Shown: positions 2,949 to 39,230 of the stretch, piece by piece
Layout of the letters: the number at the start of each line of letters is the position of its first letter
Numbering within the stretch: position 1 is the first letter of the stretch
From: a virus
DNA length: 47,334 bases
Virus record (IMG/VR): IMGVR_UViG_3300017971_000386
Location: 1 to 47,334 of that record
Reading direction: 5' to 3' (one strand)
Notes under the pieces: model-generated
Seen by the model: the letters and a program-made list of their open reading frames with translations, nothing else
What the model was told of the DNA's origin: nothing
Database searches by the model: none
Position numbers and translations under genes: made by a program

Positions 2949-3262
2949 TGGAAGAGCAGATAGTAAGACCAAGAGAGTGGATAGGCGGCTTACTTATAAA
3001 ATACAGCCCAGAGAAGCGAGAGGTAAAATACGCAATGCAGAATATGGGCATTCGTATTGAAGAGCTTGAGGCCGAGGTGAAGCGGTACAGACTGAAGTGG
3101 CAACAGGCCCTCATAGCATTAGAGAAATCACAGGCCGAGGTGGAGCGGTTGCGTGAGCTTGCAAAGAAAACGCTGTGGGAATTTGAGCATGACCAGATAA
3201 GGGTAGTGGGCGTGTGGCATGTTTTGAAAAACATAGCGGCGGGTGACCGCAGGGAGGAGTGA
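2948..3262 (+). CDS. Coiled-coil protein, unlike its neighbours in base composition
   Basis: The 104-residue product starts at the ATG overlapping the previous TGA. From about residue 35 it is a long helix with heptad-like Leu/Ile spacing (IEELEAEVKR, LIALEKSQAEVERL), typical of a coiled coil. Its codons use ATA, AGA and TTA, which are rare in the neighbouring genes, so it may be a recent arrival. Function unknown. Confidence 0.55.
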   Translation: MEEQIVRPREWIGGLLIKYSPEKREVKYAMQNMGIRIEELEAEVKRYRLKWQQALIALEKSQAEVERLRELAKKTLWEFEHDQIRVVGVWHVLKNIAAGDRREE

Positions 3263-14730: not shown

Positions 14731-14739
14731 GGAGGAAGC

Positions 14740-15498
14740 ATGGGCAACCGACTAAGACTATCAAAGCTCTGGAGTCCAAGTGAGATCACCACTCTCGGAT
14801 GGTGGGATGCAGACGACGCAGGCACCATAACCGAATCGGGTGGTTTTGTCAGTCAGTGGGATGACAAGAGCGGCAACGATGATCACATGGTACAGGCAAC
14901 AGCAGCAGACCAACCGCAGACAGGGGTGCATACTCTTGGAGGATTGAATACTATCAGCGCATATGATCTGGCTACAGGCGGCACCTTTATGAACGCACCT
15001 GTTACCTGTGGAGCTGACTTTATGTTCTTCTGCGCGATGAACCTATATGATGGTGTATTTAGTCAAGGACCATTCCAGTTGCCTCAATCTTCTGGAACTG
15101 ATCGTTGGGGTTTGAGGTTCTACCGCAATAATAACCTCACGCTCACTGCGTATAGCAATGCAGGAGCAGATCTTGCACTGACAACAATAACCGGCACGGA
15201 CAATCCGATGATCTGGGGTGGTGTGTTTGATGGTACAGGCGCAGGAACCAAAGAGGTATTCATTGACGGTACTTCCGAAGGATCAAACGCTTACACAAGC
15301 ACAGACACAACTACAGTTCAGTTGTTCCGCAACGCAGACCAGACCGCTGATACTCGGATCGGTGAAGTTGTGATTGTGCCAACGGATGTAAGCACTGCGA
15401 CAAGGCAGAGGCTTGAAGGTTACTTGGCATGGAAGTGGGGTCTTGAAGGTTCACTCCCCCTCGGCCATCCTTACAAAAACGCAGCACCAACGGTATAG
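14740..15498 (+). CDS. LamG/concanavalin-like surface protein, paralogue 1
   Basis: A 252-residue protein. It opens with TLGWWDADDAGTITES and VSQWDDKSGNDDH, followed by alternating beta strands and VFIDGTSEG, the pattern of a LamG/concanavalin-like jelly roll. The end reads RLEGYLAWKWGLEGSLP, a terminal motif seen in phage and bacterial LamG-type proteins. It probably binds glycans as part of a fibre or head decoration. Its neighbour at 15508 is a paralogue, so the pair arose by tandem duplication. Ribosome site AAGGAGGAAG. Confidence 0.65.
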   Translation: MGNRLRLSKLWSPSEITTLGWWDADDAGTITESGGFVSQWDDKSGNDDHMVQATAADQPQTGVHTLGGLNTISAYDLATGGTFMNAPVTCGADFMFFCAMNLYDGVFSQGPFQLPQSSGTDRWGLRFYRNNNLTLTAYSNAGADLALTTITGTDNPMIWGGVFDGTGAGTKEVFIDGTSEGSNAYTSTDTTTVQLFRNADQTADTRIGEVVIVPTDVSTATRQRLEGYLAWKWGLEGSLPLGHPYKNAAPTV

Positions 15499-15507
15499 GA
15501 GAATCGA

Positions 15508-16293
15508 ATGCGATTAGAAATACCAACAGGCAAACGGTTCATTGTAGGAATGGGTGATTGGACTCCTGCTGAGATTACCGTTGAGACATGGTGGGATGCA
15601 AGCGACACCGATACCATCACCGACAGTGGTGGAGCAGTCTCCCAGTGGAATGATAAGAGCGGCAACAATAACCATCTGACCCAAGGCACCGCATCAGCAC
15701 AGCCGGTTACAGGAACGCGCACGATCAACGGCTTGAACGTCATCGACTGGGATGACAACTCGCCGCAGGACAGGATGCAGCTGACCAACGTGATAACAGA
15801 CGGCGCACCGTTCGCCGCGTTCGTCGTCGCGCAGTTCGACAACGTAAACTCCAACGCGATTGTTTATGATTCCACCAACAACAGATACACACAACTAGGA
15901 GAGGTCTCTGCTACCAACAACATCATCTTCCGGCTCGGCGCGGATGAAGGTGGTGGCATCAACTTCACTGGTGCGAACGGGTCGAGCATCGGCACGGATG
16001 TTGGCCTGATGGAGTTCTGGGTTGAGACTGGTGGTGCGGCATACGCGAGTATCAACGGTGCGTTGTCTGGCACCAGTGCCGGAACGTGGACGGCAACCGA
16101 CTACGAGATCAGCCGACTCGGACGCAACGGTTCCGACAGCATGGACGGCAGACTCGCAGAGGTCATCCTGATGGTAACGGAACCAAGCGAGGCAGACCGC
16201 CAGAAGATCGAAGGTTATCTAGCCCACAAGTGGGGATTCGCAGGGTCTCTGCCCGTTGGCCACCCTTACAAAAATACACCGCCCGTAGCATAG
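15508..16293 (+). CDS. LamG/concanavalin-like surface protein, paralogue 2
   Basis: A 261-residue paralogue of the preceding protein. Shared blocks are WWDASDTDTITDSGG, VSQWNDKSGNNNH and, at the end, KIEGYLAHKWGFAGSLP with GHPYKN. The middles differ, which suggests divergence of the binding face. Ribosome site TAGGAGAA. Likely a second carbohydrate-binding decoration or fibre component. Confidence 0.65.
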   Translation: MRLEIPTGKRFIVGMGDWTPAEITVETWWDASDTDTITDSGGAVSQWNDKSGNNNHLTQGTASAQPVTGTRTINGLNVIDWDDNSPQDRMQLTNVITDGAPFAAFVVAQFDNVNSNAIVYDSTNNRYTQLGEVSATNNIIFRLGADEGGGINFTGANGSSIGTDVGLMEFWVETGGAAYASINGALSGTSAGTWTATDYEISRLGRNGSDSMDGRLAEVILMVTEPSEADRQKIEGYLAHKWGFAGSLPVGHPYKNTPPVA

Positions 16294-16302
16294 GAGAAAG
16301 AT

Positions 16303-16539
16303 ATGCAAGAAGTCGTTTTCAATACCGAAGCAGAAGCAGAAGCACAACAGGCACTCGATCTGGTTTGCCATCTTGCGCATCATAACGATGAACCCTATGC
16401 AAGCCAGACTACCCGATGGGCAGAACCGCGCGAACGCCTTGATGGTAAGTGGGCATACCCTTGCTGCGAACACCAAGACTACAGCGGCATGACCGTTGAA
16501 GATTACGACCCAAACAACTACCCGACTGAGGAGGTTTAG
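16303..16539 (+). CDS. Hypothetical small acidic protein in the fibre island
   Basis: Seventy-eight residues behind AGGAGAAAG. Acidic, with a Cys pair (YPCCEHQD) and an N-terminal helix (NTEAEAEAQQALDLV). No family recognised. A fibre chaperone is possible only by position. Confidence 0.5.
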   Translation: MQEVVFNTEAEAEAQQALDLVCHLAHHNDEPYASQTTRWAEPRERLDGKWAYPCCEHQDYSGMTVEDYDPNNYPTEEV

Positions 16540-16541
16540 CA

Positions 16542-18434
16542 ATGGCAGGACACGAGAAGATTCATGCGGCAGAACACACGAATGGCGACGATGACATTCA
16601 GTCGGCAACCAATGCACAGAAAGGCCTTGCTACTGCAGCACAGATCCAAGCTCTTGAAGGACTCACTGCAAGCAACACGGATGCCAACGAACGCGGCGGC
16701 TTCATTGGCCTGAACGGTGTAGCCGTTGACAACGGCGACAACCCGTTGGACCTGTCGGTGGTTGATGGCACGCGCACCCTTACGCTTGCACCCACCTCCG
16801 CAGACTTCAGCTTCTACGATCTGGACGTCAAGCGCACCGTAACCGGCAGCGTGAACGTAGTCTGGACGGATGTGGAAGGGCCGCACTACTTCTACTTCCC
16901 CAGTGGTAGCACAACCCTGACCGTAACAACCACCTTCGACATTGGTTGGATCTATGGCAGTACAGGCACCTTCGTGGCAGAGCTGTACTGGGATGCGACC
17001 AACAAGGAAACAATCCTTGACGGTCCGGTCCGTGAAATGCACCAGAACCAGATGAGTGGTGCTACACACTACGCCATGCACACAAGCATCGGCGCGGCCA
17101 TGGTGGACGACGGGCTTGTGCTGAATGGCTTCAGCGTTGACGGTAATGGTACGCTCGATGCGCACGCACAGTTCGGCAACACTGCAGGGAAGTTCCGCGA
17201 TGAAGACCAAGTGTTCAGTGTTGATGCCAAGGCAAGCACGGTCGGCTATCGCATCCTGTACCTTGAAGGCTCGGAGGCAAGCCCTACCCTGCGTCAGTTC
17301 ACCAAGGCAGGGTTCGGTGTAATGACTGACGTTGATGCCGGTATTGGTGCGACTGGTCGGCCCGTGTTCAACGAGAACAATGGCGGAACGTGGCAGCTCA
17401 CCACCGTATCGAACAATAATTACTTCCTGAACCATGCGTTCGCCATCGGCGTTGCCAACGGTGAAGACACTTACGTCAAGATGGGACAGACCGAGCATAG
17501 CACCCTCGGTGATGCGCAGGACGCAGCAGAAAGCGAACTGGAAACGGTTGTGAGCGCACTGGTCTTTGCAGAGCTTCGGCCTTTGGGTAGCTTTATCTGC
17601 GAAGCGCGGAATAGCTTCACCAACGCAGTCAAGACCGTGATCCGCAGCACCACCGACGGCGGTGACTACATAGACCAACGCAGGGCAAGAACTGGCGCAG
17701 GTAGCGCGAGCAGCAGCACAGTCAACGACCCCGATGCCGTACACGTAAACGTGAGCGGTGAGATTGCAGCCATTGCTGCCAAGGCAACACCAATCGCAGC
17801 CGACTACCTCATCTCAGAAGACAGCGCCGACGGCAACAACAAAAAGAGCGTGACGCTTGGTACGCTGCCAGTGAGTACACCGCAGCAGACTGCACTCGAC
17901 CTCAAGCAAGACATCCTTGCTGAAGGTGAGTTTGTAGATGGTGACAAAACCAAGCTTGACGGCATCGAGGCTCTGGCCGATGTCACGGACGCAACGAATG
18001 TTGATGCCGCAGGCGCAACCATGAACACGGACACCGACCTGTCTAGCAACAGCTACTTCCTTGACCAAGACGACATGAGCAGTGACGACGCTACCAAGGT
18101 CGCCAGTCAGCAGAGCATCAAGGCCTATGCACAGCCCAAGACGCTAGAGGTCAACACGCAAACCGGTACAAGCTACACCCTCGCAGCAAGTGACAACGGC
18201 AAGATCGTCACCTGCAACAACGCAAGCGCAATCACATTGACCGTTCCGAGTGGGTTGGGTGCAGGCTTCAACTGTACGGTGATTCAGCTTGGGGCAGGGC
18301 AGGTTACACCGACTGCCAGTGGCACGACCTTGAACAACCGGCAGAGCCACACGAAGACTGCCGGTCAGTATGCAGCAATCACTCTCGCGGCCTACGTGGC
18401 CAATACCTTCGCATGGCAGGGAGACTCCGCATGA
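16542..18434 (+). CDS. Large virion/fibre protein
   Basis: A 630-residue protein that begins with a version of the fibre unit (HTNGDDDIQSATNAQKGLA) and has another KLDGIEALADVT unit near residue 475. Between them lie mixed beta-rich domains including WTDVEGPHYFYFPSG; the C-terminus (TLEVNTQTGTSYTLAASDNG) is like fibre tip domains of the tail-spike type. Low Cys, high Thr/Ser/Asn. It shares modules with the protein at 13540, so the two may build one fibre system. ATGA overlap with the next gene. Confidence 0.65.
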   Translation: MAGHEKIHAAEHTNGDDDIQSATNAQKGLATAAQIQALEGLTASNTDANERGGFIGLNGVAVDNGDNPLDLSVVDGTRTLTLAPTSADFSFYDLDVKRTVTGSVNVVWTDVEGPHYFYFPSGSTTLTVTTTFDIGWIYGSTGTFVAELYWDATNKETILDGPVREMHQNQMSGATHYAMHTSIGAAMVDDGLVLNGFSVDGNGTLDAHAQFGNTAGKFRDEDQVFSVDAKASTVGYRILYLEGSEASPTLRQFTKAGFGVMTDVDAGIGATGRPVFNENNGGTWQLTTVSNNNYFLNHAFAIGVANGEDTYVKMGQTEHSTLGDAQDAAESELETVVSALVFAELRPLGSFICEARNSFTNAVKTVIRSTTDGGDYIDQRRARTGAGSASSSTVNDPDAVHVNVSGEIAAIAAKATPIAADYLISEDSADGNNKKSVTLGTLPVSTPQQTALDLKQDILAEGEFVDGDKTKLDGIEALADVTDATNVDAAGATMNTDTDLSSNSYFLDQDDMSSDDATKVASQQSIKAYAQPKTLEVNTQTGTSYTLAASDNGKIVTCNNASAITLTVPSGLGAGFNCTVIQLGAGQVTPTASGTTLNNRQSHTKTAGQYAAITLAAYVANTFAWQGDSA

Positions 18435-19579
18435 GAGCAGGACTGACAGGATTTCTAAGCGTTTTTGGCGCGGCAGATTTAGACCTGTCGGCAGGGGCGT
18501 TAGAAACATTTGAATCCGCAGACGTAAGCAACCTCGATGTCTGCAGGCTCACTGACACCAAGGCAGTGCTTGTCTATACGGACGTTGGGAATAGCAACTA
18601 CGGAACGGCTGTTGTACTGTCCTTGTCTGGCACGACCGTCACCGCAGGAACACCCGTAGTCTATAAGAGCGTTGGGATCAATTCTAAGAACCGAGTTGTG
18701 CGTGTAGACGATACCCATGTCATCGTAGGTTACGCCGACTCCACCAACAGTAAGACCTTCGCGCAGTGCCTTACCATCAGTGGAACAACCATTACGACCA
18801 ACACGGAGTTGGAAGTGAACAATGGTTACTCCGCTCTAATTGGTTTGATGAGCTTCGATAGTACCTACTTTGCTATAGGCTACCGCGACCCGAACGGTTC
18901 GACTGCGAACATGCCGATCTGTTCCTTGCTCAGTCTCAGCGGCACGACCCTGACAGAAGAGGACACAGCCAACATCCACATCGGTGCATCAGCGCAAGAC
19001 AGCATCGACATGGACGGGTTCTCTTCCACACTCGGCATCGTTCTATATCGCAGAAGTGGCGTTACCTATGCGAGACAGGTATCACGTTCTGGCGCAACCA
19101 TAACAACGCTTGACGCAGACACTATTTCTTCTGACTTGTCTGCACAGCTTTGCGTGAGCGCACTGGACAGCACACGGGCAATCGTGTGCGGTTACTGGAC
19201 AGGCACAGGTAACACGCGCACCCGTGGCTTGATCATGGAAATCAGCGGCAGTGTGTTTACCAATGGCACCATCACTGACATCTGGGACCAAGGCAACTTC
19301 ACCCACAGCTACGTTGACGTTGCTGCATACGACTCATCGAATGCTGTTGTGTGTATAAAGGCACACGATGACGCAGCAACCTACAACGGTGGACCTGCCG
19401 TTGGTGTTCACGTGTCGGTGAGTGGTAGTACCATCACCGCCGATTCGCCTGTGATCGTGGAGAGTGATTACGCAGGAACGCACATTGCAAACTGTGCCCT
19501 GACTTCAACGCACGGCATCGTCGGCTTCAGAAGTTCTAACGGTCCTGCAGGTAAGGCGGCTTGCCTGTACTTAAGCTAG
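18431..19579 (+). CDS. Propeller-like repeat protein
   Basis: A 382-residue product beginning at the ATGA overlap. From residue 30 it consists of six or seven units of roughly 50 residues: a strand such as DSTRAIVCGYW or DDTHVIVGYAD, then LSLSGTTVT or LTISGTTIT. Regular units of this length fit a beta-propeller or beta-solenoid. Bacterial relatives of this repeat style are usually extracellular. A receptor-binding or decoration role is likely, but I cannot assign one. Confidence 0.6.
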   Translation: MRAGLTGFLSVFGAADLDLSAGALETFESADVSNLDVCRLTDTKAVLVYTDVGNSNYGTAVVLSLSGTTVTAGTPVVYKSVGINSKNRVVRVDDTHVIVGYADSTNSKTFAQCLTISGTTITTNTELEVNNGYSALIGLMSFDSTYFAIGYRDPNGSTANMPICSLLSLSGTTLTEEDTANIHIGASAQDSIDMDGFSSTLGIVLYRRSGVTYARQVSRSGATITTLDADTISSDLSAQLCVSALDSTRAIVCGYWTGTGNTRTRGLIMEISGSVFTNGTITDIWDQGNFTHSYVDVAAYDSSNAVVCIKAHDDAATYNGGPAVGVHVSVSGSTITADSPVIVESDYAGTHIANCALTSTHGIVGFRSSNGPAGKAACLYLS

Positions 19580-19587
19580 GAGAAGCA

Positions 19588-20505
19588 ATGGGTGACAAGC
19601 GCGACAAGATGCACCCCGAGAGTGGCCAAGCACTCGACAGCAATGACCAGCTGTTCGACGTGACCGAGTGGCGCAGGAACAGCTACGGCACCACCGAAGC
19701 CATTACCCCAGAGCGTGGTGCCATGCCCGTGGTCCAGAGCGATGTGATCAACCGGCTACAGATGCAGGAGTTCCAGAAAGGTAAAGGCTCAGAGACACTT
19801 GCAGCAGACGCCGTCGTTGACACTTACACCGTAACCCTTTCGGCGGGCCACAGTGCCGCAATCGGCGACACGCTAGTCCTGTTTGAGCAGCAAGTTGTCG
19901 GTGAGCCCTTCCTGTACGAGGGCATGATACTGGGTGTACTCGGTGATGTCCTTACGCTAGACCGTCCGTTGAACTTCAGTTACACCTCTGCCGGTACCTT
20001 TGCCATCCTTACCGAAACAGAGATGGCAGTGGATGGGTCAGTTACTCGGCAGATCTATCGGGTGCAGCCGCCGACTTTCTACAGCTTCGACATTACGCGC
20101 ATGACCATCAGCATGGTGATGGGCACCCAAGGCGATGACGCACTCTTCGGCGATCTTACAGCACTCACCAACGGGATCACGGTGCGGCTTGTCCGTGACT
20201 ACGAAAACGAGTACTTCAATATGGCCAACTGGAAAGACAATGGCCACATCGCCGAGACCTGCTACGACATGGTATACACCGAGCGTTCTGGTGGTGGCGG
20301 CTCTTACGGTATGCGAGCGCGTTGGACTTTTGGTGGCACCCAGAATATGGGCGCAGTGGTTCGGCTCCGTGGTGGGTCGAACCCAGTGCTTGGTCCACAG
20401 GACCGGATTGAAATTGTTATCAGCGACGACCTGAGAGGACTGAGCCACATGGGGGCGTTAGTTCAGGGTCACTGGGTTGACGTTGTATGGAATGGTGATT
20501 ACTAG
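19588..20505 (+). CDS. Virion structural protein of unknown role
   Basis: A 305-residue product from ATG 19588 behind AGGAGAAG. The N-terminal part is polar. The middle holds a beta-rich domain with SAGHSAAIGDTLVLFE, and the end (RGLSHMGALVQGHW) is hydrophobic. It closes the surface-protein island, directly before the protease. No family recognised. Confidence 0.55.
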   Translation: MGDKRDKMHPESGQALDSNDQLFDVTEWRRNSYGTTEAITPERGAMPVVQSDVINRLQMQEFQKGKGSETLAADAVVDTYTVTLSAGHSAAIGDTLVLFEQQVVGEPFLYEGMILGVLGDVLTLDRPLNFSYTSAGTFAILTETEMAVDGSVTRQIYRVQPPTFYSFDITRMTISMVMGTQGDDALFGDLTALTNGITVRLVRDYENEYFNMANWKDNGHIAETCYDMVYTERSGGGGSYGMRARWTFGGTQNMGAVVRLRGGSNPVLGPQDRIEIVISDDLRGLSHMGALVQGHWVDVVWNGDY

Positions 20506-21909: not shown

Positions 21910-23325
21910 ATGAACAAGATCAAGGAACTCAAAGAGAAGCTCGACGCCGCCTATGCGGAAATGAAAGAGCTGAGTCTCGGCATCGACAAGGCCGAAGGCG
22001 ACGAGGACAAAGAAGCTGCCCGCACCGCGTTTGAAGCAAAGCGTGAAGACGTCGACAGCATCAAGAAGGAACTGGACGACGCCATCGCCGAAGCCGAACA
22101 GGCCAAGGCTGTTGCTGACAGTCTCGAAAAGGCTCGCGGCATGACCACCGTGAACGTCCCTGCAGGAGCTTCCGTTGCAGGTTCCGCCGAGGTCAAGGAC
22201 CACGGCAAAGAGATGCAGGCCAAAGAAGGCATCTTCCTGAAGTACATGGAAGGCGGCATCAAAGGTCTGAGCGGCGAAGAAGCCCGCGCCATGCAGCCGA
22301 CCGAAGGCAGCAAGATGAGCAACAGCGAGAAGACCGCCGGTGCCATCTGTATGCCCAAGTCCGCCGTGTTCGCCATGCTCGGTCCCAAGTGGGCCAAGCA
22401 GATGGGGTGGTACAAAGACGGCACCATGAACCTGATCGCCAAGGCTTCGACCATGGTCAGCAGCTCCGACGCGCTCGGCGGCTACACCATTCCCGAAGAC
22501 TTCCGTCTGCCCATGCTCGACCTCGCAGTCGAAGCCCCGACCCTGCTGAACCGCGTCACCGTCATGCCTGCTCCGACCGGCGAGATCACCATGCCCAAGT
22601 CGAAGCAGACCGACGCCGATGAATACGGCGGCATGGTTGGTGAGTGGATTGAAGAGGGTGGCCTCAAGCCCAAGACCGACACCCGCTTCGAGCAGGTGAA
22701 GATCACCACCCACGAGTATGCCATGCACACCCAGATCAGCATCCGGCTGCTCAACCGTTCGGCCATCGCCATGGAACAGTGGCTGACCACTCGTGGTCGT
22801 CAGGTTATCCTCGACGCCATGGACACCGCCATCATTTCTGGCGACGGCACCGGCAAGCCTCTCGGCCTGATCAACACCGATGGCATCCGTGAGCGCAAGC
22901 GCGAGACCAGTGGCACCGTGACCCGCACCGACTGCACCAAGCTGAAGTTCAAGCTCAAGCCTTACCACCGTGCAGGTGCTGTGTATGTCATGGACGACAC
23001 CGTCCTCGAACAGCTCGAAGACCTGACCGACAACGAAGGGCGTCAGCTCTTCACTGCCTCCATGGCGAATGGTCCCTTCGACCGTCTCTGCGGTTACCCC
23101 TACATCGTGTCGACCCGCACGCCGGACATCGGCAGCGATGGCGACCTGATGTTCGTCGACCTGCGTGAGTACTACATGCCGATGGAACAGGACATCATGA
23201 TCAAGCGGTCCGATGATTATGACATCGTCCACAACCTCGCCACGATCGTGATGTTCGCAGTGGCAGGCGGCAAGTTCGTACAGCCTCGCACCGGCGCGCT
23301 CCTCGGCGACGAAGAAACAAGCTGA
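21910..23325 (+). CDS. Major capsid protein (HK97 fold)
   Basis: A 471-residue capsid subunit. Residues 1-80 are a charged coiled coil (KIKELKEKLDAAYAEMKEL), the delta or scaffold domain removed by the protease upstream. The HK97 fold follows: DALGGYTIPEDFRLPMLDL in the N-arm/E-loop region, VTVMPAPTGEITMP, then WLTTRGRQVILDAMDTAIISGDGTGKPLGL of the spine helix, and GYPYIVS near the end. Ribosome site AGGAGAAAG. It should be among the most expressed genes; a strong hairpin follows it. Confidence 0.93.
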   Translation: MNKIKELKEKLDAAYAEMKELSLGIDKAEGDEDKEAARTAFEAKREDVDSIKKELDDAIAEAEQAKAVADSLEKARGMTTVNVPAGASVAGSAEVKDHGKEMQAKEGIFLKYMEGGIKGLSGEEARAMQPTEGSKMSNSEKTAGAICMPKSAVFAMLGPKWAKQMGWYKDGTMNLIAKASTMVSSSDALGGYTIPEDFRLPMLDLAVEAPTLLNRVTVMPAPTGEITMPKSKQTDADEYGGMVGEWIEEGGLKPKTDTRFEQVKITTHEYAMHTQISIRLLNRSAIAMEQWLTTRGRQVILDAMDTAIISGDGTGKPLGLINTDGIRERKRETSGTVTRTDCTKLKFKLKPYHRAGAVYVMDDTVLEQLEDLTDNEGRQLFTASMANGPFDRLCGYPYIVSTRTPDIGSDGDLMFVDLREYYMPMEQDIMIKRSDDYDIVHNLATIVMFAVAGGKFVQPRTGALLGDEETS

Positions 23326-23402: not shown

Positions 23403-23816
23403 ATGGGTTGGTACAAAGTAGTCGGAGACGAGTCGATCCAATACGTCGACGAGTCCGGCCAAGAACGGAGAGCCAACGTCGGAAGTATCGTGAACATCGA
23501 GGTCCGTACCCAAGCGAAGAGGTTGAAGAAGGCGGGCCAGATCGTTCCCCTTGAAAGCGCCGATGAAAACATCGGAGCTGATTTCGTACTTCGTGAAAAG
23601 CACACGGACCCCGCACCCGCGAAAGCGTTGAAGAGCAGCCAGAAAGAAACCGTCGATGCCGAGGATGGCGAAGACATTTCGATCGGTGCCCTTGTGCAGG
23701 TCGGTGAAGAAGTCGGCGAGATCGTCAAGGTGAACACGCGAACTGTCGATGTCCGGTTTGAAGAGGACGAAGAACCCAGACGATGCAAGCGTGAAGATGT
23801 GGAGGTGATCGGATGA
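23403..23816 (+). CDS. Hypothetical protein between capsid and glycosyltransferase genes
   Basis: A 137-residue product behind AAGGAGGAGAG. The N-terminal half is beta-rich; the C-terminal half (GALVQVGEEVGEIVKV, then VDVRFEEDEEPRRC) resembles a small SH3/KOW-like barrel. It is placed where head decoration or stabilising proteins are often coded. Overlaps the next gene by 4 bases. Confidence 0.55.
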   Translation: MGWYKVVGDESIQYVDESGQERRANVGSIVNIEVRTQAKRLKKAGQIVPLESADENIGADFVLREKHTDPAPAKALKSSQKETVDAEDGEDISIGALVQVGEEVGEIVKVNTRTVDVRFEEDEEPRRCKREDVEVIG

Positions 23817-25849
23817 CGATGTACAAGGTCCGAGTGCCGCACGTCTTTCGGGACGGACTAGGTAGACCGGACCCGAAGATGCCCGACGACGCGGTCGAGA
23901 TCTGCAATAAGCGGGTTGCCATGAAGCTGTTGCAGCAGGGCGTCATTGAGTCCGACGATCTACCTCCCAGAGGCATCCTTCCAGACCGAAGCCCGATCGA
24001 CCCGATCACACGGGTCGGTGTCTACATGCACACGTCGAGCTTCTACTCTGGCGGGAGGATCCACATACACCAGATGGCGTGGTGTATGGCGAACATGGGA
24101 GCCGAGGTTTTCATCGTGACCAATGCGCACCCGCGATGGTCGACGGATTACCGGAAGCACCCGAACCTCAAGATCCTGTCAGGTGCTGAAGCAGGCAAGG
24201 TGCCGAAAGACATCGACCTGCTCTTCAGTGACGGCAAGAACATGATGGGGAGGCAGGTGGTTCAGCGCAAGCTAGAGAACCTGAACATCCCTCTTGTGCT
24301 GATCAACTTCGAGACGCCAAACTGGGTTGCAGAGTTTGACCCTAACACGGCGTCGAGGATGGAGAACTTCGAGGACACCTTCAAGCACGCGGACATGATG
24401 CTGTGTAACAGCGAGGAGTCCCTGAAGTACCTGCACCAGTACATGCGAGTGACCGTGCCGACCGGAGTCGTACCGCCTGCAGCCAACACGCACGCGGTCG
24501 ACAAGAACGTCGCCAGTCCTCTACCCCCAGAAGCGCGGGGCGTCCCGTACGTTGTGTGGAGCGCACGCTCCTCCACGTACAAGGGCGGGCATGTGATCTG
24601 CGATGCAGTCATGAACTACCCGAAGCCTTTGAACCTTGTGCTGATCGGCAAGCCGAGCACGGTGCCGAAGAGTACCGAACTGCACAAGGTGTTCAGCTTC
24701 AAGGTCCCGATCACAGATGCGGAGAAGATGCGCGTCATGCGGGACGCTGTCTGCGTCGCTGCGCCGAGCAAGTTTGAAGGGTTCGGTATGGTGCCTGCAG
24801 AAGCCATGAGCAACGGCACACCTGTGCTCGCGTACGACCTGCCTGTACTGCGGCAAGGCTACGGCGATCGGATCCAGTACGCCGACTGGGGCGACGAGAA
24901 GCAGTTCGCCCAGAAGCTGTACGACATCGTCGACGGCAAGACCGTGGTGGAGGTGGACGCGGAAGAGGTGCGCCGTACCTATGGCATGGAGGCGATGGAG
25001 AAGGACATGGCTGAACGTGTGCCGTACTTCAATTTTAACCGGCGTCGTGTCAGCGCTCAGATGATCTGCTACTACGGACCGATGGTGCAAGAGGCAATCG
25101 CTTCAGTGTACCCGCACGTCGACGAGATCGTGATCGCGCACGGACCGACAGAGCTGTGGAAAGACTTCCCTGCGGACGACTCCCTGCAGCTGATCCAAAA
25201 CTATCCTGACCCAGAGGGCAAGATCAAGGTCGACGCCCGCAAGGTCTGGAAGAACAAAGGCGAGATGCGCACCGCCTGCCAGAGGATGGCGACCGGCAAC
25301 CATATCCTGATCGTCGATGCCGATGAGATCTATCACGGACTCGACGCATGGATCGAGCACGCGCCTTCGTTCGGCTGTCCTCGGTGGGTGCACTTCTGGC
25401 ACGACCTCGATCACTACGTTGTTGACCCCTCCGGTAACAAGAGGTGGGGTGCAGCGCACGAGCTAGGCGGCAGCGTACACAACCACCTGCGGTGGGCGTA
25501 CTGGCGGAACAGCAACCGGTGGAACGAGCGGGGCACAGCGGCGATGGGATCCGGCAACATGCGGATCAGCAGCGGCGTGGCTACAGCTCAAGCCGTCGAG
25601 GCTGTGCCACAGTGCTGTATCTATCACCTCGGCCACGTGCTCGACCCTGTCATGATGAAGGCGAAGCACGACTTCTACATCGCCAGAGACGGGGCAGGTG
25701 CAGGACGAGTACAGCGAGCAGCTGCGTGGAGCAACTGGAAGGGCGAGCTTGGCGACTGCGGTGACGGTCTGATCAGGCAGGTCTTCTGGGAGGTGCCCGA
25801 GTTGGTGCGCAGTGCATACGCACGGGTCGTGGAGGTAGCCGATGCCTGA
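23813..25849 (+). CDS. Two-domain glycosyltransferase (GT4-like then GT2-like)
   Basis: A 678-residue product. Residues about 65-400 form a GT-B glycosyltransferase: VGVYMHTSSFYSGGR, a sugar-nucleotide region with VVWSARSSTYKGG, and the E-x7-E motif E322...E330 in FEGFGMVPAEAM. Residues about 405-660 form a GT-A domain: RRVSAQMICYYG, VDEIVIAHGP and HILIVDADEIY with D502 and D504 as the DxD metal site. One chain could add two different sugars. It begins a four-gene modification island within the head genes, so a capsid or tail protein glycan is the likely product, with host surface sugars as the alternative. Confidence 0.85.
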   Translation: MTMYKVRVPHVFRDGLGRPDPKMPDDAVEICNKRVAMKLLQQGVIESDDLPPRGILPDRSPIDPITRVGVYMHTSSFYSGGRIHIHQMAWCMANMGAEVFIVTNAHPRWSTDYRKHPNLKILSGAEAGKVPKDIDLLFSDGKNMMGRQVVQRKLENLNIPLVLINFETPNWVAEFDPNTASRMENFEDTFKHADMMLCNSEESLKYLHQYMRVTVPTGVVPPAANTHAVDKNVASPLPPEARGVPYVVWSARSSTYKGGHVICDAVMNYPKPLNLVLIGKPSTVPKSTELHKVFSFKVPITDAEKMRVMRDAVCVAAPSKFEGFGMVPAEAMSNGTPVLAYDLPVLRQGYGDRIQYADWGDEKQFAQKLYDIVDGKTVVEVDAEEVRRTYGMEAMEKDMAERVPYFNFNRRRVSAQMICYYGPMVQEAIASVYPHVDEIVIAHGPTELWKDFPADDSLQLIQNYPDPEGKIKVDARKVWKNKGEMRTACQRMATGNHILIVDADEIYHGLDAWIEHAPSFGCPRWVHFWHDLDHYVVDPSGNKRWGAAHELGGSVHNHLRWAYWRNSNRWNERGTAAMGSGNMRISSGVATAQAVEAVPQCCIYHLGHVLDPVMMKAKHDFYIARDGAGAGRVQRAAAWSNWKGELGDCGDGLIRQVFWEVPELVRSAYARVVEVADA

Positions 25850-26468
25850 GACCCTCACCAAGCAAGAGAAGATGGAGCGGTGGATCGCGCGCCACATCAA
25901 GCGACCTCCGCTGACCATGTACGACATCGGCGTCGGTCCGAAGACAGAGGCGCAGACCTTGAAGAGGCTATACCCGAAGATGGAGGTCTATGGGTGCGAG
26001 CCTTTGTTGCATCTGTACCAAGGCATGGAGGAGAGCTTCTGTGGGCAGGTGATGCCGGTAGCTCTCGGACGGGAGACAGGACACACGACGATCCACTACA
26101 ACCCAGAGAGCCTGCTCGACGCGAGCGCTGTCCGGCACACCCTAGGGCAGACCGCAAGCAAGCGCGTCCCTGTGTGGACGCTCGACCAGTTCGATGAATG
26201 GTTCGGCAAGCCGAAGCGGGTCCTGCTGTGGATGGACATCGAAGGCATGGAGCTTGCAGCTTTGCAGGGTGGACACGGCCTGCTCGCCAGTCATCGTGTG
26301 CGGTGGATCAATCTGGAAGAGCGTCGCGCGGATCTGGAGGGATGGCCCAAGTCGGAAGACATCCGGCAGCTGCTTGCAAGCTACGGGTACATCCGCGTGC
26401 AAGAGTACAACAAACACCCGCTGCACCAAGACGTGGTGTACCGGTACAAAGGAGAAGACAGTGTCTAA
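25842..26468 (+). CDS. FkbM-family methyltransferase
   Basis: A 208-residue product overlapping the glycosyltransferase by 8 bases. TMYDIGVGPKTEAQTLKRLYP is the SAM-binding start, YGCEPL the strand 2 end, and WTLDQFDEWFG with LLWMDIEGMELAALQGG is the FkbM hallmark. FkbM enzymes O-methylate sugars or polyketides, and next to a glycosyltransferase sugar methylation is the natural reading. Soluble, no membrane segment. Confidence 0.85.
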   Translation: MPETLTKQEKMERWIARHIKRPPLTMYDIGVGPKTEAQTLKRLYPKMEVYGCEPLLHLYQGMEESFCGQVMPVALGRETGHTTIHYNPESLLDASAVRHTLGQTASKRVPVWTLDQFDEWFGKPKRVLLWMDIEGMELAALQGGHGLLASHRVRWINLEERRADLEGWPKSEDIRQLLASYGYIRVQEYNKHPLHQDVVYRYKGEDSV

Positions 26469-27033
26469 CATTCGGCAGCTGATCGAGTACGACCACCGCA
26501 ACCCGAAGGGCGCGGGAAGCAACATCGAAGAGAAGCTCTTTCTGTTCGGTCTGCTTCGCATGATCAAGCCGAGCCGTGTGTTGGAAATCGGAGTCAGTCG
26601 AGGACACATGACCGCGTGGCTTGCGCTTGCGTTGCACATGAACGGCAAGGGCGAGTTGGTCAGTGTGGACAATTTCAGTAAAGCGCACGGAGGACAGGCT
26701 GCTTCCTGCGAGCCTGCGCGTACGCGTGTGCGCGCGAACGGGATGCGCTCGCCGACCTTCGTGACGTCCGACTCCGTTGCATATCTCACAAGCCAGCCCG
26801 ACGACAGCTTCGACGTCGTGTGGGTGGATGGAGACCATAGCTATGATGGAGCGCGGGCAGATATTGTGGAGAGCCTTCGCGTGGCTAGTAAGGTGGTTTG
26901 CGTACATGACACAAGTCAACTGTACAGTGGCCCAAGGGATGCGATCGCGGATGTTCTGCGCGATCGCCAAGAAGATGGAAGTGGTTTTTGGGTTAAGGGA
27001 TGTCGAGGAATCTGGATAAGGAACGTGGACTGA
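26461..27033 (+). CDS. Class I SAM methyltransferase (Methyltransf_24-like)
   Basis: A 190-residue product from GTG 26461, which overlaps the FkbM stop and has AAAGGAGAAG upstream. SRVLEIGVSRGHMTAWLAL is motif I, ELVSVDNFS the ribose-binding strand, and DSFDVVWVDGDHSYDGARAD the DGDHSY motif of the Methyltransf_24 and cephalosporin-hydroxylase-like group. Commonly found in glycan clusters. It probably acts on the same glycan as its neighbours. Ends with a TGATG overlap. Confidence 0.75.
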   Translation: MSNIRQLIEYDHRNPKGAGSNIEEKLFLFGLLRMIKPSRVLEIGVSRGHMTAWLALALHMNGKGELVSVDNFSKAHGGQAASCEPARTRVRANGMRSPTFVTSDSVAYLTSQPDDSFDVVWVDGDHSYDGARADIVESLRVASKVVCVHDTSQLYSGPRDAIADVLRDRQEDGSGFWVKGCRGIWIRNVD

Positions 27034-27632
27034 TGCCGAAGAAAGCAAAGGTGTACGGGATTCAGCGCAGCGGCAACAACTGGTTACAGTGGATGCTCGC
27101 GGCAAACTACAAGGTGAAGATCATGGGCAGCAACTACGGGTGGACCCATGGACCCTACAGCACCGACAAGGAAGTGGCGGACGCTGTGAACTTCGTGACG
27201 AGCAAGCACCCGATCGAGTGGTTGCCCAGTATGCAGAGATTCCACAAGGTGCACCACGGTCTGACCATCGGACAGTTCATCCGGCGGTGCGACATGATCG
27301 AACGGTGGAACAGTCTGTACGCCGGACATCTTGCCAACGCCGAGAAGTTCGGCGCGCGGTTCGTTCGGTACGACGATCTGCTCCGCGACCCAGAAGCGGT
27401 GCTGTGCGGAATCGTCGACGGCGCATTCCCCAGAAAGCCGCAGCCCTTCCGCTCGGCAGAGAACCAACACATGAGCACCACCATGACCCCGACCAAGAAG
27501 CCATTCAATAAGCGGCAGTACTTGGAGAAGACCTACCTGAAGCGGTACACGCAAGCAGAGATTGATGAGGTGATCGCCCGCGTCGACTGGGGCGTGGCGA
27601 ATGACCTCGGCTATACGAAGGAGAACCTATGA
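27033..27632 (+). CDS. Sulfotransferase-like protein, first copy
   Basis: A 199-residue product. VYGIQRSGNNWLQWML at 7-22 matches the 5'-phosphosulfate loop of PAPS-dependent sulfotransferases (RSGTTWL). K58-H-P-x5-S66 matches the 3'-phosphate motif (R/K-x-P-x5-S) with Lys in place of Arg. ARFVRYDDLLRDPEAVL is the typical later strand and helix. It would move sulfate from PAPS to a sugar or protein; the APS kinase at 37453 could supply PAPS. Last gene of the modification island, overlapping the connector gene by 4 bases. Confidence 0.78.
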   Translation: MPKKAKVYGIQRSGNNWLQWMLAANYKVKIMGSNYGWTHGPYSTDKEVADAVNFVTSKHPIEWLPSMQRFHKVHHGLTIGQFIRRCDMIERWNSLYAGHLANAEKFGARFVRYDDLLRDPEAVLCGIVDGAFPRKPQPFRSAENQHMSTTMTPTKKPFNKRQYLEKTYLKRYTQAEIDEVIARVDWGVANDLGYTKENL

Positions 27633-28174
27633 GCCTTGTGACGGTGGACGAAGTCAAAGCGATCGGACGGATCGACTATTCAACACACGACACCGAGCTG
27701 CAGCTTCTGATCGACGGAGCCGAAGCCTACGTCGAGGAGTACTGCAACATCAAGCTGACCAGTGCAACCTACACGGACGAGCGAGTCGACGCAGACGGCG
27801 GGCCGGACCTGTACCCGAGGAACCTTCCGATCACGGACGTGACCGATGTGAAGGACGCGTGGGACGACGACACTGCAGAGGACGCGAGTGAGTACTACTT
27901 CACGGACACGCGCATCGTGCAGGATCTGCGAGATGGTGCATGGGAGGAGGGCGAGCTTCGGTGGAAGGTGACTTACGAAGCAGGGTATGATGCAAGTACC
28001 GCGCCGAAAGGATTAAAGAACGCCATCATCGGACTCGCCCTCCTGTCTTATAACAACGCCGACAGCAAGCACAGCAACAGCGCGCAGGGCCTGAGCCTGT
28101 CATGGGACAAGCTCGCCGAGGGCAACATCAATGCGCAGCTCGATCGCTTCAGTCTGTACCGGTATGTGGAGTAG
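27629..28174 (+). CDS. Head-tail connector (HK97 gp6-like)
   Basis: A 181-residue product. The start (VTVDEVKAIGRIDYSTHDTELQLLIDGAEAYVEEYCN) is the helical pattern of the gp6-like connector family (phage QLRG/connector). A beta insert and a C-terminal helix (AIIGLALLSYNNAD) follow. It forms the ring under the portal. Its usual place is right after the capsid gene, so the four modification genes have been inserted there. Confidence 0.85.
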   Translation: MSLVTVDEVKAIGRIDYSTHDTELQLLIDGAEAYVEEYCNIKLTSATYTDERVDADGGPDLYPRNLPITDVTDVKDAWDDDTAEDASEYYFTDTRIVQDLRDGAWEEGELRWKVTYEAGYDASTAPKGLKNAIIGLALLSYNNADSKHSNSAQGLSLSWDKLAEGNINAQLDRFSLYRYVE

Positions 28175-28459: not shown

Positions 28460-28834
28460 ATGCAAGATCAAGTCGTTTTGTTTGGAGCCATTTCTATTGC
28501 ACTGGTTGCGCTGTCTTTTCTGATCCGCACGCTGCTGATCTGGAAGGGGCAGAACGAGATCGTCAACAAGTTCGACCACTACCTGCCGTTCGCCATCGCT
28601 GCGGCCAAGTGGGTGGAGGCTACGGTGCCAGACGACTTCGGCGCAGACGCCGAGGACAGCGCCACCACCAGAGCCGTGCACAAGCTCGACCTGTTCCTGA
28701 AGAAGTTCACCGAGACCGTGCAGCGGTTCGACGGCAAGGAGCCAAGTGAAGAGCTGAAGAAAGAAGCCATGCGGTGGAGCGTCGAGCTTGCCGAGCGTCT
28801 GAACATCATGAAGAAAGACAAGCCCGATGCCTAG
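28460..28834 (+). CDS. Single-pass membrane protein
   Basis: A 124-residue product behind AGAGGAGGAG. One strong N-terminal membrane segment (LFGAISIALVALSFLIRTLLIW, residues 7-28) with a soluble, charged helical body. It opens a group of three or four small membrane genes within the connector-tail module. A holin or spanin-related role is possible but unproven. Confidence 0.55.
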   Translation: MQDQVVLFGAISIALVALSFLIRTLLIWKGQNEIVNKFDHYLPFAIAAAKWVEATVPDDFGADAEDSATTRAVHKLDLFLKKFTETVQRFDGKEPSEELKKEAMRWSVELAERLNIMKKDKPDA

Positions 28835-29048
28835 TTGGATGCTTGCCCTGTGGGGTCTGTTGAAAGACCTGCTTGTGTCTGTGTTCATGGAAGCGAATAA
28901 GACACCGGCCATCGAAGAGGAGGTGGATCTTGAAGAAGGTAATCTGGCTGAGCCTAAGCCTCTTGATTACGCAGGTCTGTACGGGCTGCGCAATCGGGAT
29001 CAAGGAGAAGCGGTCGATAGTGATGGTGAGTCCGAGACCGATACCTGA
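28827..29048 (+). CDS. Small membrane-proximal protein overlapping a lipoprotein gene
   Basis: Seventy-three residues; the ATG overlaps the previous gene by 8 bases. The N-terminus (SWMLALWGLLKDLLVSVFM) is amphipathic or membrane-inserted; the rest is acidic. The second half is coded over the start of the lipoprotein gene in another frame. It is reminiscent of nested spanin pairs, though both parts differ from known families. Confidence 0.45.
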   Translation: MPSWMLALWGLLKDLLVSVFMEANKTPAIEEEVDLEEGNLAEPKPLDYAGLYGLRNRDQGEAVDSDGESETDT

Positions 29049-29211
29049 AGCAGCGAAGGGCACACCGGTCGTCGCCACCAACGAGAAGATCCCGCTCGTG
29101 ATCCTCAACCGGAAGGATGAACATTTCAAGCAGAACGTCGGCGGGTATGTACTTGTCGACCCGTGGTTCTACGAGTTACTGATCAACGTGTACAACAGCA
29201 AGGAGAAGTAG
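28930..29211 (+). CDS. Small lipoprotein with TTG start (candidate o-spanin-like)
   Basis: A 93-residue product from TTG 28930, chosen because GAGGAGGTGG lies just upstream and the signal then begins with KK. MKKVIWLSLSLLITQ followed by VCTGC20 is a lipoprotein signal with Cys20 as the lipid site. The mature part is about 74 residues and includes Pro/Lys-rich strands. The start is nested in the other gene, as o-spanin genes are, and the next gene codes for a membrane plus coiled-coil protein. A tail or exclusion lipoprotein is an alternative. Confidence 0.6.
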   Translation: MKKVIWLSLSLLITQVCTGCAIGIKEKRSIVMVSPRPIPEAAKGTPVVATNEKIPLVILNRKDEHFKQNVGGYVLVDPWFYELLINVYNSKEK

Positions 29212-30428: not shown

Positions 30429-30890
30429 ATGGCAACAGTAATCGGTTATGATTGCGTGCTGTACTACAACAACGGCACAACCGGTTCGCCGAGTTGGTTG
30501 GAGATCGACACCGTCCGCGACGTGACGCTGAACCTTGAGCGTAACGAAGTGGACGACACCAGTCGTACCACCAACGGGTGGCGTTCCCGTCTCGCCGGTC
30601 TGGCACAGTGGGGTGCCGACTTCGAGATGATCTACAACACAGAGAACACCGCGTGGCAGAAGGTTCGCGAGAGCTTCTTCCTCAACACCTCGATCGAAGT
30701 GCTCGCCCTCGATGGCGACATCTCGGTCAACGGTTCGGAAGGTCTGCGCGGCACCGTGTTCGTGACGAGCTTTGAGCGGGCTGAGCCTCTCGAAGAAGCT
30801 GTCACCAACGCGACCACCTTCGTCGGCTCCGGCACTCCCCAGTGGGGCGTGACCAGTGGCGGAGTGTTCGTACCTAGCGACGGCAGCTAG
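30429..30890 (+). CDS. Major tail tube protein
   Basis: A 153-residue product behind AAGGAGAAAG. LEIDTVRDVTLNLERNEVDDTSR and the later GWRSRLAGLAQWGADFEM fit the tail tube beta-sandwich of TP901-1/phi-type siphoviruses. Position before the chaperones and tape measure supports this. Followed by a strong hairpin. Confidence 0.83.
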   Translation: MATVIGYDCVLYYNNGTTGSPSWLEIDTVRDVTLNLERNEVDDTSRTTNGWRSRLAGLAQWGADFEMIYNTENTAWQKVRESFFLNTSIEVLALDGDISVNGSEGLRGTVFVTSFERAEPLEEAVTNATTFVGSGTPQWGVTSGGVFVPSDGS

Positions 30891-34808: not shown

Positions 34809-35585
34809 ATGCCGACACCTCTGCAAGATGTCAATGTGGGCGACCCTATTCTTGCCGACAACTACAACCGACTGCAGGGCGGAGTCAATGCTCTGCTCAG
34901 CGCATTCGGCAACATCGAGGTCGGACCGAATGGTGTGTCCGTGCCAAGTCAACTGGAGCGGTTCCCGATTGAGCTGCTTAGTACGAGAGTGGTGGCTACT
35001 GCAGACGACAGCGTCACTGCGTTCAAGGTAGGTGATGTGGTTGCCATCTTTGGCGGAGCGATGGATCCGACACTAGGTGGAGACGCGGACGAGGTCACGA
35101 CCAGTGCCGTCACGGTGGCAGAACCTGTGGACGCGGGACATTCTACTTACGGTGTAGTGTATGAGCCCATCGACGGAGACACTCCCGGCAAGGTGATCGT
35201 CGCGGGGTTCGCGTTTGCTCTCATCGTGCGACCCAGTACAGACGACGATGATGCACTACTGGCAACCCACAGTGTCATCCGTCCCGCTGTTTTCCCAGAG
35301 GACACGACCGATAGCATTCCGGCGACGAGGGGCGTGCTCACTTACGGGGTCGGGATCGGTGACGTCATATGGGAAGACACGTCTGTCACGCCGAACACGA
35401 ACTCGCACTGGGCTTTGATCAGACTCGCCGCTCGGATTACTGGCTGCACTTACGTCGAAGCAGTTGAGGATCAAACCGGACAAACTGGTGAAGTCAAGAT
35501 TCGATTCCTCAACACAGCGCACGAGAAAAAGGGAGAAGAGCTGACTCTGCCCTACTATGTGTCTGACTGCACTGGAGGAAGCTGA
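34809..35585 (+). CDS. Virion protein of the tail-tip region
   Basis: A 258-residue product from ATG 34809 behind AAGGAGGCG. DVNVGDPILADNYNRLQGGVNALL, near the N-terminus, is a short motif frequent at the start of phage tip or fibre proteins. The remainder is beta-rich and ends with SDCTGGS. Overlaps the first of the three paralogues by one base. Confidence 0.6.
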   Translation: MPTPLQDVNVGDPILADNYNRLQGGVNALLSAFGNIEVGPNGVSVPSQLERFPIELLSTRVVATADDSVTAFKVGDVVAIFGGAMDPTLGGDADEVTTSAVTVAEPVDAGHSTYGVVYEPIDGDTPGKVIVAGFAFALIVRPSTDDDDALLATHSVIRPAVFPEDTTDSIPATRGVLTYGVGIGDVIWEDTSVTPNTNSHWALIRLAARITGCTYVEAVEDQTGQTGEVKIRFLNTAHEKKGEELTLPYYVSDCTGGS

Positions 35586-37452: not shown

Positions 37453-37986
37453 ATGAAAACGATTTGGCTGTTCGGCCCGAGCGGGGCAGGCAAGACAACC
37501 GTAGGCAACGAACTGGTCGAGAAGCTACGTGCGCGCGGGCGTGACGTGGTGATGATCGACGGTGACGAGCTTCGCCGAACGGTCTGCTTCGATCTCGGCT
37601 TCAGTTACGATGACCGGTTCAAGCAGACGACGCGAGCCGCGTACATGGCGAAGGCTGTGACTGCAGGCAACGCGTGGGCCATCGTCTGTCTGATCACTCC
37701 GTACAAGGAGTTCCGCGATGTCGCGACTCGGCTCTGTGGTCCAGAGCTTGTGTATCTGCAGAGCAATCAAGAGGAGCGCGTCCGACGAGATCCGAAAGGT
37801 CTCTATGCAAAAGCAATCGCCGGAGAGCTTGAAGCAAAGCTAACTGGCTACGACGGCGCGTTCGATGTGCCGGATGAGTCCGAGTGTATGACGGTCACCA
37901 CCGAAGACTATGCAGCGGCGACGGTGGCAGACATAATTTTGAGCCGAGTGATCGGCGAGAGCTTCACAAAAGGAGGAGGAATCTAA
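37453..37986 (+). CDS. cysC: Adenylylsulfate (APS) kinase
   Basis: A 177-residue enzyme that phosphorylates APS to PAPS. Walker A G8-P-S-G-A-G-K-T-T16; VMIDGDELRRTV is the APS-binding DGD motif; LGFSYDDRFKQTTRAAYMA is the family helix; RRDPKGLYAKAIAGE and LTGYDGAFDVP are the later signatures, all in normal order and close to the normal length. It is followed immediately by a sulfotransferase gene (TAATG overlap). APS itself must come from host ATP sulfurylase, which is not in the window. Confidence 0.92.
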   Translation: MKTIWLFGPSGAGKTTVGNELVEKLRARGRDVVMIDGDELRRTVCFDLGFSYDDRFKQTTRAAYMAKAVTAGNAWAIVCLITPYKEFRDVATRLCGPELVYLQSNQEERVRRDPKGLYAKAIAGELEAKLTGYDGAFDVPDESECMTVTTEDYAAATVADIILSRVIGESFTKGGGI

Positions 37987-39230
37987 TGATCGTGATCAGT
38001 GGGTGTCCGCGCAGTGGCACCAGTCTTATGATGGACATCATGCGGGAGACGTTCGGCGAGGGCAGGATCATCGGCGAGAAGTTCCCGCAGGAGAAGCGCA
38101 TCAAGCGCCAGACTGAAAGGCAGGAAGGCGAGACCGATCAGCAGTGGGCGGTGCGCGAGTACATCATGAACAAGGACGGCAGCAAGCAGAAAGCGCTCGC
38201 CGAGTTCGCCGAGACCAAGGACATGAACCCGAACGGGTTCTGGGAGTGCGGTTACACAGTGCGCGGGATTCAGTATGTCCGCCCAGAGAACGCGCCGAAG
38301 GCGACGGACATCTGCAAGGTCGTGTCGCAGGGTCTCGCCCAGAGCAACCCCCAGTACATCGACAAGGTCGTCTATATGCTCCGACACCCCAGAGCTGTGG
38401 CGAAGTCGCAGGAACGTCTGAAGGGGCGCTTCGGTGGACTGGACAACCCAGAGCGTGGAGGCAAGGAGGTGCGGGAGCACAGCCCGAAGATGTTCGTGCA
38501 GGTGACCAAGGCAGCAGCGTCGTGGCTTCGCGCGCACGCGCACGTGCCCGTGCTGCTCGTGGACTTCGACGACCTGATTGAAGACCCCGCCGCTCAGCTG
38601 CAACGCGTGCAGGACTTTCTGGGAGAGGGAGACTTCACCCAGTCAGTCAGCCGCATCGAGCCGAAGCTGCGCCGGTCGTATCCGCAGGAGGTGGAGCATC
38701 CGCTGTGGGGTCCGGCTGAAGCGCTGTACTCTGCGATGAGTTCGCTCGACTACGACGCGGTGGCCGACGTTGAGGTGCAGCGGGTGGAGCGAGAGAAGCG
38801 TCGTGTGTGCGTTCGACTCGGTCGTGCCGTCGTCGACAACGAGTGTGCTCTCTGCAGGGCCGATGCGAACACGCGGAGGAACTACGCGGTGCAGGCCACG
38901 AGGAGAGGGATCGCGTGGCAGTCTGAGCCGTGCGTGTACGAGTGCCTCGAAGAAGGCAAGACGATCGAGGAGAGCATCGCGAGCAATCACTGGGCGAACC
39001 TCGCCGCGCCGATCGGAGAGGAGTACTGGTGCCCGCGTGCCGGAGCCAAGGTGAACCCCAAGCACTGCGAAGCCTGCAGAGAGTATGACGTGTTCCGCGC
39101 ACAGCTCAAGCAGGCAGCGGAAGACAAGCTCATCGACTGGAGGAACGAGCCGTGTGTCTACGAAACAAGCGAAGGACCAGAGCCGCACGTGACCGAAGAG
39201 CAAAGCATAGCAAGCAACCACTGGCTGTGA
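37986..39230 (+). CDS. Sulfotransferase, second copy, with duplicated C-terminal domain
   Basis: A 414-residue product. ISGCPRSGTSLMMDIM at 4-19 is the 5'-phosphosulfate loop and VVYMLRHPRAVAKS has R133-H-P-x5-S141, the 3'-phosphate motif. VPVLLVDFDDLIEDPAAQ is the later conserved strand and helix. From about residue 275 follows a Cys-rich extension in which a unit occurs twice: EPCVYE...TIEESIASNHW, then EPCVYE...TEEQSIASNHWL, each near CxxC cysteines, perhaps zinc-binding. Uses PAPS, presumably made by the kinase next door. GTGA overlap with the next gene. Confidence 0.88.
   Translation: MIVISGCPRSGTSLMMDIMRETFGEGRIIGEKFPQEKRIKRQTERQEGETDQQWAVREYIMNKDGSKQKALAEFAETKDMNPNGFWECGYTVRGIQYVRPENAPKATDICKVVSQGLAQSNPQYIDKVVYMLRHPRAVAKSQERLKGRFGGLDNPERGGKEVREHSPKMFVQVTKAAASWLRAHAHVPVLLVDFDDLIEDPAAQLQRVQDFLGEGDFTQSVSRIEPKLRRSYPQEVEHPLWGPAEALYSAMSSLDYDAVADVEVQRVEREKRRVCVRLGRAVVDNECALCRADANTRRNYAVQATRRGIAWQSEPCVYECLEEGKTIEESIASNHWANLAAPIGEEYWCPRAGAKVNPKHCEACREYDVFRAQLKQAAEDKLIDWRNEPCVYETSEGPEPHVTEEQSIASNHWL

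What the first reader, a model, noticed from the sequence alone, without database searches (positions are those of the whole stretch)
23813..27632. Four-gene glycan modification island inserted between capsid and connector genes
The connector gene normally follows the capsid gene. Here a two-domain glycosyltransferase, FkbM methyltransferase, a second methyltransferase and a sulfotransferase, all overlapping, lie between. Together they could build a methylated, sulfated glycan. Position suggests the acceptor is a head protein.
Basis: partly seen in the sequence, partly recalled or inferred. Interest (0 to 1): 0.7.

Follow-up and report, generated by a model that had tools for sequence, protein, structure and literature searches.

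The report
Sugar-coating cassette wired to phage capsid

Summary
The four genes are real: a GT4+GT-A glycosyltransferase, an FkbM methyltransferase, a second methyltransferase (true start 26461) and a sulfotransferase, translationally coupled between the capsid (plus a small neck-like gene) and the connector. They are not a one-off insertion. In 38 of 39 non-redundant viral contigs the same glycosyltransferase sits within 1 kb of the capsid gene. Only the genes behind it turn over: 1 to 10 methyltransferases, sulfotransferases, GT2s, sugar epimerases and others. The glycosyltransferase carries an N-terminal ~50-aa phage domain, a paralogue of the neighbouring neck-like gene; two relatives lacking the glycosyltransferase keep it as a free protein. 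The best evidence for the acceptor is new: GT+ capsids end in serine (50/56; 11/12 in a hold-out set), GT+ major tail proteins end in serine (14/14), and no other conserved window protein shows this. Four relatives without the glycosyltransferase lack it. The serine codon switches AGY/TCN at least 12 times while serine is kept. Mycobacteriophages Che8 and Firecracker, whose groups are reported to have glycosylated virions, also end both proteins in serine. The window also encodes APS kinase and a second sulfotransferase, supporting sulfation. Best reading: a new variant of phage virion O-glycosylation. No biochemistry was possible.

The parts
21910..23325 (+). Major capsid protein (HK97 fold); last residue Ser471 (codon AGC) is the proposed glycan acceptor
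   Evidence: PF05065 2e-43; terminal Ser in 50/56 GT+ capsids
23403..23816 (+). Small neck/connector-like gene (gene X); its N-terminal domain is a paralogue of the GT's N-terminal domain
   Evidence: phrog_2322 head-tail connector, 1.5e-4 for the L004 homologue; hhalign 98.2% against the GT N-terminus
23813..23965 (+). N-terminal ~50-aa phage domain (Y) of the glycosyltransferase
   Evidence: Conserved in the GT family; stand-alone ORF in L084 and L087, which lack the GT
23813..25849 (+). Glycosyltransferase, domains Y-GT4-GT-A; fixed core of the cassette
25842..26468 (+). FkbM-type methyltransferase (variable tailoring gene)
   Evidence: PF05050 3e-17
26461..27033 (+). Second SAM methyltransferase (Methyltransf_24), corrected start
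   Evidence: PF13578 4e-15; start from homologues and RBS
27033..27632 (+). Sulfotransferase (alternative start 27000)
   Evidence: PF13469 1.5e-4, sub-threshold; model Z 14.2 to SULT1C3
27629..28174 (+). Head-tail connector; downstream border of the cassette
   Evidence: PF05135 3e-11; phrog_442 6e-28
30429..30890 (+). Major tail (tube) protein ending ...PSDGS; second proposed acceptor
   Evidence: phrog_1407 1.3e-15; terminal Ser 14/14 GT+
37453..37986 (+). APS kinase (makes PAPS, the sulfate donor)
   Evidence: PF01583 7e-34; APS kinase of M. thermolithotrophicus 6.6e-30
37884..39230 (+). Second sulfotransferase, adjoining the APS kinase; ORF start uncertain
   Evidence: PF13469 6.6e-11

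Best explanation
The cassette O-glycosylates the virion. During late expression the Y-GT4-GT-A enzyme attaches a sugar (probably extended by its second glycosyltransferase domain) to the C-terminal serine of the major capsid protein and of the major tail protein. The two methyltransferases and the sulfotransferase, fed with PAPS partly through the phage's own APS kinase, then cap the glycan with methyl and sulfate groups. The Y domain, a paralogue of the neighbouring neck-like protein, probably brings the enzyme to the assembling particle. Shown: gene content, fixed linkage to the capsid, turnover of the tailoring genes, and the terminal-serine pattern. Inferred: the reactions, their order, the role of Y and any benefit (such as shielding or altered surface contacts).
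For: GT within 1 kb of the capsid in 38/39 non-redundant contigs. Variable genes behind it are methyltransferases, GT2, sulfotransferases, epimerases, pyruvyl transferase. Terminal Ser: capsid 50/56 GT+ against 7/33 GT-, hold-out 11/12, MTP 14/14 GT+ against none in GT- L087 and L097; no other window protein with 10 or more homologues shows it. Four GT- relatives in the main clade all lack it. At least 12 AGY/TCN codon switches with Ser kept. Che8, Tweety, Firecracker and Catdawg MCP and MTP also end in Ser; D29, with no annotated GT, does not. Literature: glycans at C-termini of capsid and tail tube in mycobacteriophages (PMC12619734), Che8 capsid (PMC11256854), cluster O (PMC11600133). APS kinase in the window and between capsid and GT in L025.
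Against: No chemical data. The independent-pairs test on the capsid tree has only about 5 supported pairs and is not significant. Six GT+ capsids do not end in Ser (L036, L107, and the distant-GT contigs L100-L102 and L176). Some GT- capsids do end in Ser (7/33). Most GT- contigs are fragments, so the GT could lie elsewhere. The terminal Ser was noticed after looking, although a hold-out set then agreed.
Confidence: 0.78

Rival explanations
1. The enzymes remodel a host surface glycan (receptor masking or superinfection exclusion), and their place beside the capsid gene is accidental.
For: Many phage glycosyltransferases do this (established knowledge); the nearest solved folds of the GT4 half are ordinary bacterial GT4 enzymes, including LPS and teichoic-acid ones.
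Against: Fixed capsid linkage in 38/39 contigs, fusion to a phage neck-type domain, terminal-Ser pattern in exactly two virion proteins, late-operon position.
Confidence: 0.1
2. The terminal serine serves capsid and tube assembly or proteolysis and is only correlated with the glycosyltransferase by descent; the glycan goes on another virion protein (for example a fibre or the neck).
For: The tree-aware pair test lacks power; 7/33 GT- capsids end in Ser.
Against: Occurs in two unrelated proteins, survives near-unalignable C-termini and codon switching, disappears in four scattered GT- relatives, recurs in mycobacteriophages reported as glycosylated, with an unrelated gene order.
Confidence: 0.1
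3. The glycosyltransferase modifies phage DNA bases.
For: Phage glycosyltransferases that glycosylate DNA are known (cited in PMC12619734).
Against: FkbM methyltransferases and sulfotransferases have no known role there; no base-hydroxylating enzyme was recognised among the genes scanned; position and acceptor pattern point to protein.
Confidence: 0.02

Closest known systems
Mycobacteriophage virion glycosylation (Che8; cluster O: Corndog, Firecracker, Catdawg); Freeman et al. 2023 as cited in PMC12619734, PMC11600133 and PMC11256854
   Same: Phage-encoded glycosyltransferases with an O-methyltransferase; glycans reported at the C-termini of capsid and tail tube; in cluster O the genes sit inside the head operon (PMC4351075); both proteins end in Ser.
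   Different: Different place (portal-protease gap, or right genome end in Che8). No detectable match of this GT in any phage record at 1e-5. Here the GT is fused to a neck-type domain, with a hypervariable tailoring set, sulfotransferase and APS kinase.
Giant-virus glycosylation (chloroviruses and mimiviruses; from general knowledge)
   Same: Virus-encoded multi-domain glycosyltransferases and methyltransferases decorating capsid glycans; several giant-virus GTs are structural neighbours.
   Different: Eukaryotic hosts, different capsid fold, no gene or order relationship tested.
GT4 enzymes such as MshA, BshA, sucrose-phosphate synthase
   Same: Fold of residues ~65-408, Z about 30.
   Different: Small-molecule acceptors; no Y or GT-A fusion.

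Membership tests
Phage virion O-glycosylation system (mycobacteriophage type) | Phage encodes glycosyltransferases in or near the virion operon | tested here: met
Phage virion O-glycosylation system (mycobacteriophage type) | Capsid and tail-tube C-termini carry O-linked glycan | not testable with these tools
   Needs mass spectrometry; only the terminal-Ser pattern is seen
Phage virion O-glycosylation system (mycobacteriophage type) | Both capsid and major tail protein end in serine, as in Che8 and Firecracker | tested here: met
   window ...ETS and ...DGS
Phage virion O-glycosylation system (mycobacteriophage type) | Homologous glycosyltransferase | tested here: inconclusive
   tblastn of the window GT against phage records, which hold Che8, Firecracker and Catdawg: no match at 1e-5; distant homology not excluded
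GT4 glycosyltransferase | GT-B fold with E-x7-E motif | tested here: met
   PF00534; E322 and E330 invariant in 28 sequences; Z 30
GT2/GT-A glycosyltransferase | GT-A fold with DxD | tested here: inconclusive
   PF00535 0.0047, below cut-off; D502xD504 invariant; fold search dominated by GT4
PAPS sulfotransferase | Sulfotransferase P-loop fold and PAPS-binding motifs | tested here: met
   Z 14.2 over 184 residues to SULT1C3; GxQRSGNN and KHP...S motifs
APS kinase | Walker A GPSGAGKT and DGD motif | tested here: met

The most novel reading that the evidence does not exclude
A large, uncultivated group of tailed phages glycosylates its capsid and tail tube at a C-terminal serine with a glycosyltransferase that docks on the assembling head through a captured neck-protein domain, and each phage swaps the capping enzymes (methyl, sulfate, pyruvate, deoxysugar) as an exchangeable surface coat; 'MCP and tail tube both end in Ser' would be a readable genomic mark of virion glycosylation across phages.
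Probability: 0.4. Interest if true: 0.85.

Novelty: new variant of a known kind. Interest (0 to 1): 0.74.

Why it matters
Virion glycosylation has been demonstrated in few tailed phages, mainly of mycobacteria (own knowledge of Freeman et al. 2023, read here only as cited in PMC12619734, PMC11600133 and PMC11256854). If this holds, it is common in environmental phages, the acceptor residue can be read from sequence, and phages diversify their coats by swapping tailoring genes at a fixed locus, including sulfation supported by their own APS kinase. It gives a direct, cheap test: one residue and one gene.

Tried and rejected
DNA match to known phages: none. Window GT and the Y-domain consensus against phage records: no match. 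Y domain against solved structures: only non-significant hits. One-off insertion of the island: rejected for the GT but plausible for the tailoring genes. GC content gives no sign of recent import. Sequence similarity of GT and capsid across pairs is only weakly correlated (rho 0.08). Giles was fetched but its GT status was not established, so it is not used as a control. GT-A half by fold search: hidden by GT4 matches.

Full report
WHAT IS THERE. The window is a 47,334-bp uncultivated virus record. Between the capsid (21910-23325, PF05065 2e-43) and the connector (27629-28174, PF05135) lie a small gene X (23403-23816), a 678-aa glycosyltransferase, an FkbM methyltransferase, a second methyltransferase and a sulfotransferase. 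Start codons were corrected from homologues and ribosome-binding sites: the second methyltransferase starts at GTG 26461 and the sulfotransferase probably at 27033. Neighbouring genes overlap by a few bases. GC content is flat across the region.

ENZYMES. The glycosyltransferase model has pLDDT 92. Residues ~65-408 are a GT4 fold (Z up to 30.5) with invariant E322 and E330; the C-terminal half has an invariant D502-x-D504-E505 and a weak GT2 match, so the GT-A assignment is likely but not proven. The sulfotransferase is sub-threshold in Pfam but its model (pLDDT 85) matches sulfotransferases at Z 14.2. Elsewhere in the window there are an APS kinase (PF01583 7e-34) and, next to it, a second sulfotransferase (PF13469 7e-11). 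In relative L025 an APS kinase lies between capsid and glycosyltransferase. Sulfate chemistry is therefore a repeated theme.

THE LOCUS IN RELATIVES. Searching by glycosyltransferase or by capsid leads to the same arrangement: protease, capsid, (X), glycosyltransferase, variable genes, connector. Of 39 non-redundant glycosyltransferase loci, 38 have the capsid within 1 kb. The closest relatives L004/L005 keep all four genes; L006 has one different methyltransferase; L007 has two methyltransferases; L032 has ten genes including an NDP-sugar epimerase, GT2s, FkbM and TylF. Over 93 variable proteins Pfam finds methyltransferases of several families, nine GT2, six sulfotransferases, three epimerases and SPASM/radical SAM proteins; L038 has a polysaccharide pyruvyl transferase. 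So the glycosyltransferase is the constant core and the decorations turn over.

THE N-TERMINAL DOMAIN. About 50 residues at the N-terminus recur through most of the family. They are a paralogue of the N-terminus of gene X (hhalign probability 98.2%), and both give weak matches to a head-tail connector family (phrog_2322). Two relatives without the glycosyltransferase keep this domain alone between X and the connector: L084 (73 aa) and L087 (92 aa). The HMM match of the L084 ORF (3e-4) came from a profile built without it; the L087 ORF rests on alignment and position. The whole 55.6-kb L087 contig has no match to the glycosyltransferase. On the capsid tree L084 is sister to a GT+ phage (97/91), so the enzyme comes and goes while the domain stays. 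I infer that the domain targets the enzyme to the particle; this was not tested.

THE ACCEPTOR. Capsids of GT+ phages end in serine (first seen). Among conserved families the last residue is Ser in 39/42 GT+ capsids and 13/13 GT+ major tail proteins, while protease (3/47), connector (2/23) and the others show nothing. New glycosyltransferase loci fetched afterwards served as a hold-out: 11/12 capsids end in Ser. In a larger set GT+ is 50/56 and GT- 7/33 (Fisher p 9e-11, not corrected for descent). GT+ major tail proteins are 14/14; L087 and L097, which are GT-, end otherwise. Position -1 is 89% Ser in GT+ capsids, other positions 0-16%. Of all window proteins with ten or more homologues only these two show it. 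The terminal codon is AGY in 31 and TCN in 19, with at least 12 switches on the tree (10 forced by supported branches) although each needs two base changes. In the main capsid clade 36 GT+ rows all end in Ser and four scattered GT- rows (L084, L087, L096, L097) do not. The formal independent-pairs test has about five usable pairs (3.2 with, 0.3 against) and is not significant. Exceptions are L036, L107, L100-L102 and L176; the last four have only distant glycosyltransferases.

EXTERNAL CHECK. Papers read here state that glycans sit at the C-termini of capsid and tail tube of Mycobacterium phages (PMC12619734), that Che8 has glycans on its capsid (PMC11256854), and that cluster O enzymes modify capsid and tail tube (PMC11600133). 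The original study (Freeman et al. 2023) was not held. Che8 and Tweety end ...NKTGS and ...YSDGS, Firecracker and Catdawg ...PLVGS and ...KGDS; other head proteins of these phages mostly do not end in Ser. D29, with no annotated glycosyltransferase, ends ...GGGEG and ...PGGGA. I found no paper in the held library that states a C-terminal-serine rule, but most subscription journals are missing.

VERDICT. It is a new variant of a known kind (phage virion glycosylation), apparently widespread in uncultivated phages. Chemistry, sugar identity, the role of Y, host and benefit remain open.

Noticed in passing
window 13540-14730 and 16542-18434: Two unknown proteins share a 60-aa stretch at 82% identity inside otherwise different sequences; 14740-15498 and 15508-16293 are 39% paralogues. 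The block 13540-20505 sits between a Mu-F-like head protein and the protease.
   Followed up: no
window 35585-37442: Three tandem ~210-aa paralogues, all ending in WAKG(A/Q)GW, directly upstream of the APS kinase.
   Followed up: no
window 28827-29211: Two overlapping frames (28827-29048 and 28873-29211), the second with a lipobox-like LITQVCTGC; looks like a nested spanin pair and recurs in relatives such as L087, suggesting a diderm host.
   Followed up: partly
L025:7253-8005: APS kinase with an additional C-terminal part that weakly matches NMN adenylyltransferases, lying between capsid and glycosyltransferase.
   Followed up: partly
window 45663-46457: Radical SAM protein (PF04055 4e-7).
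   Followed up: no
L006:1658-3067: Capsid gene split into two ORFs (1658-2083, 2111-3067), a frameshift or sequencing error.
   Followed up: no
L061 (Planctomycetota MAG, 196-kb contig): The capsid-glycosyltransferase locus lies in a bacterial contig, also listed as a 59-kb IMG/VR record, possibly a prophage; rare in that phylum (1 of 392 genomes).
   Followed up: partly
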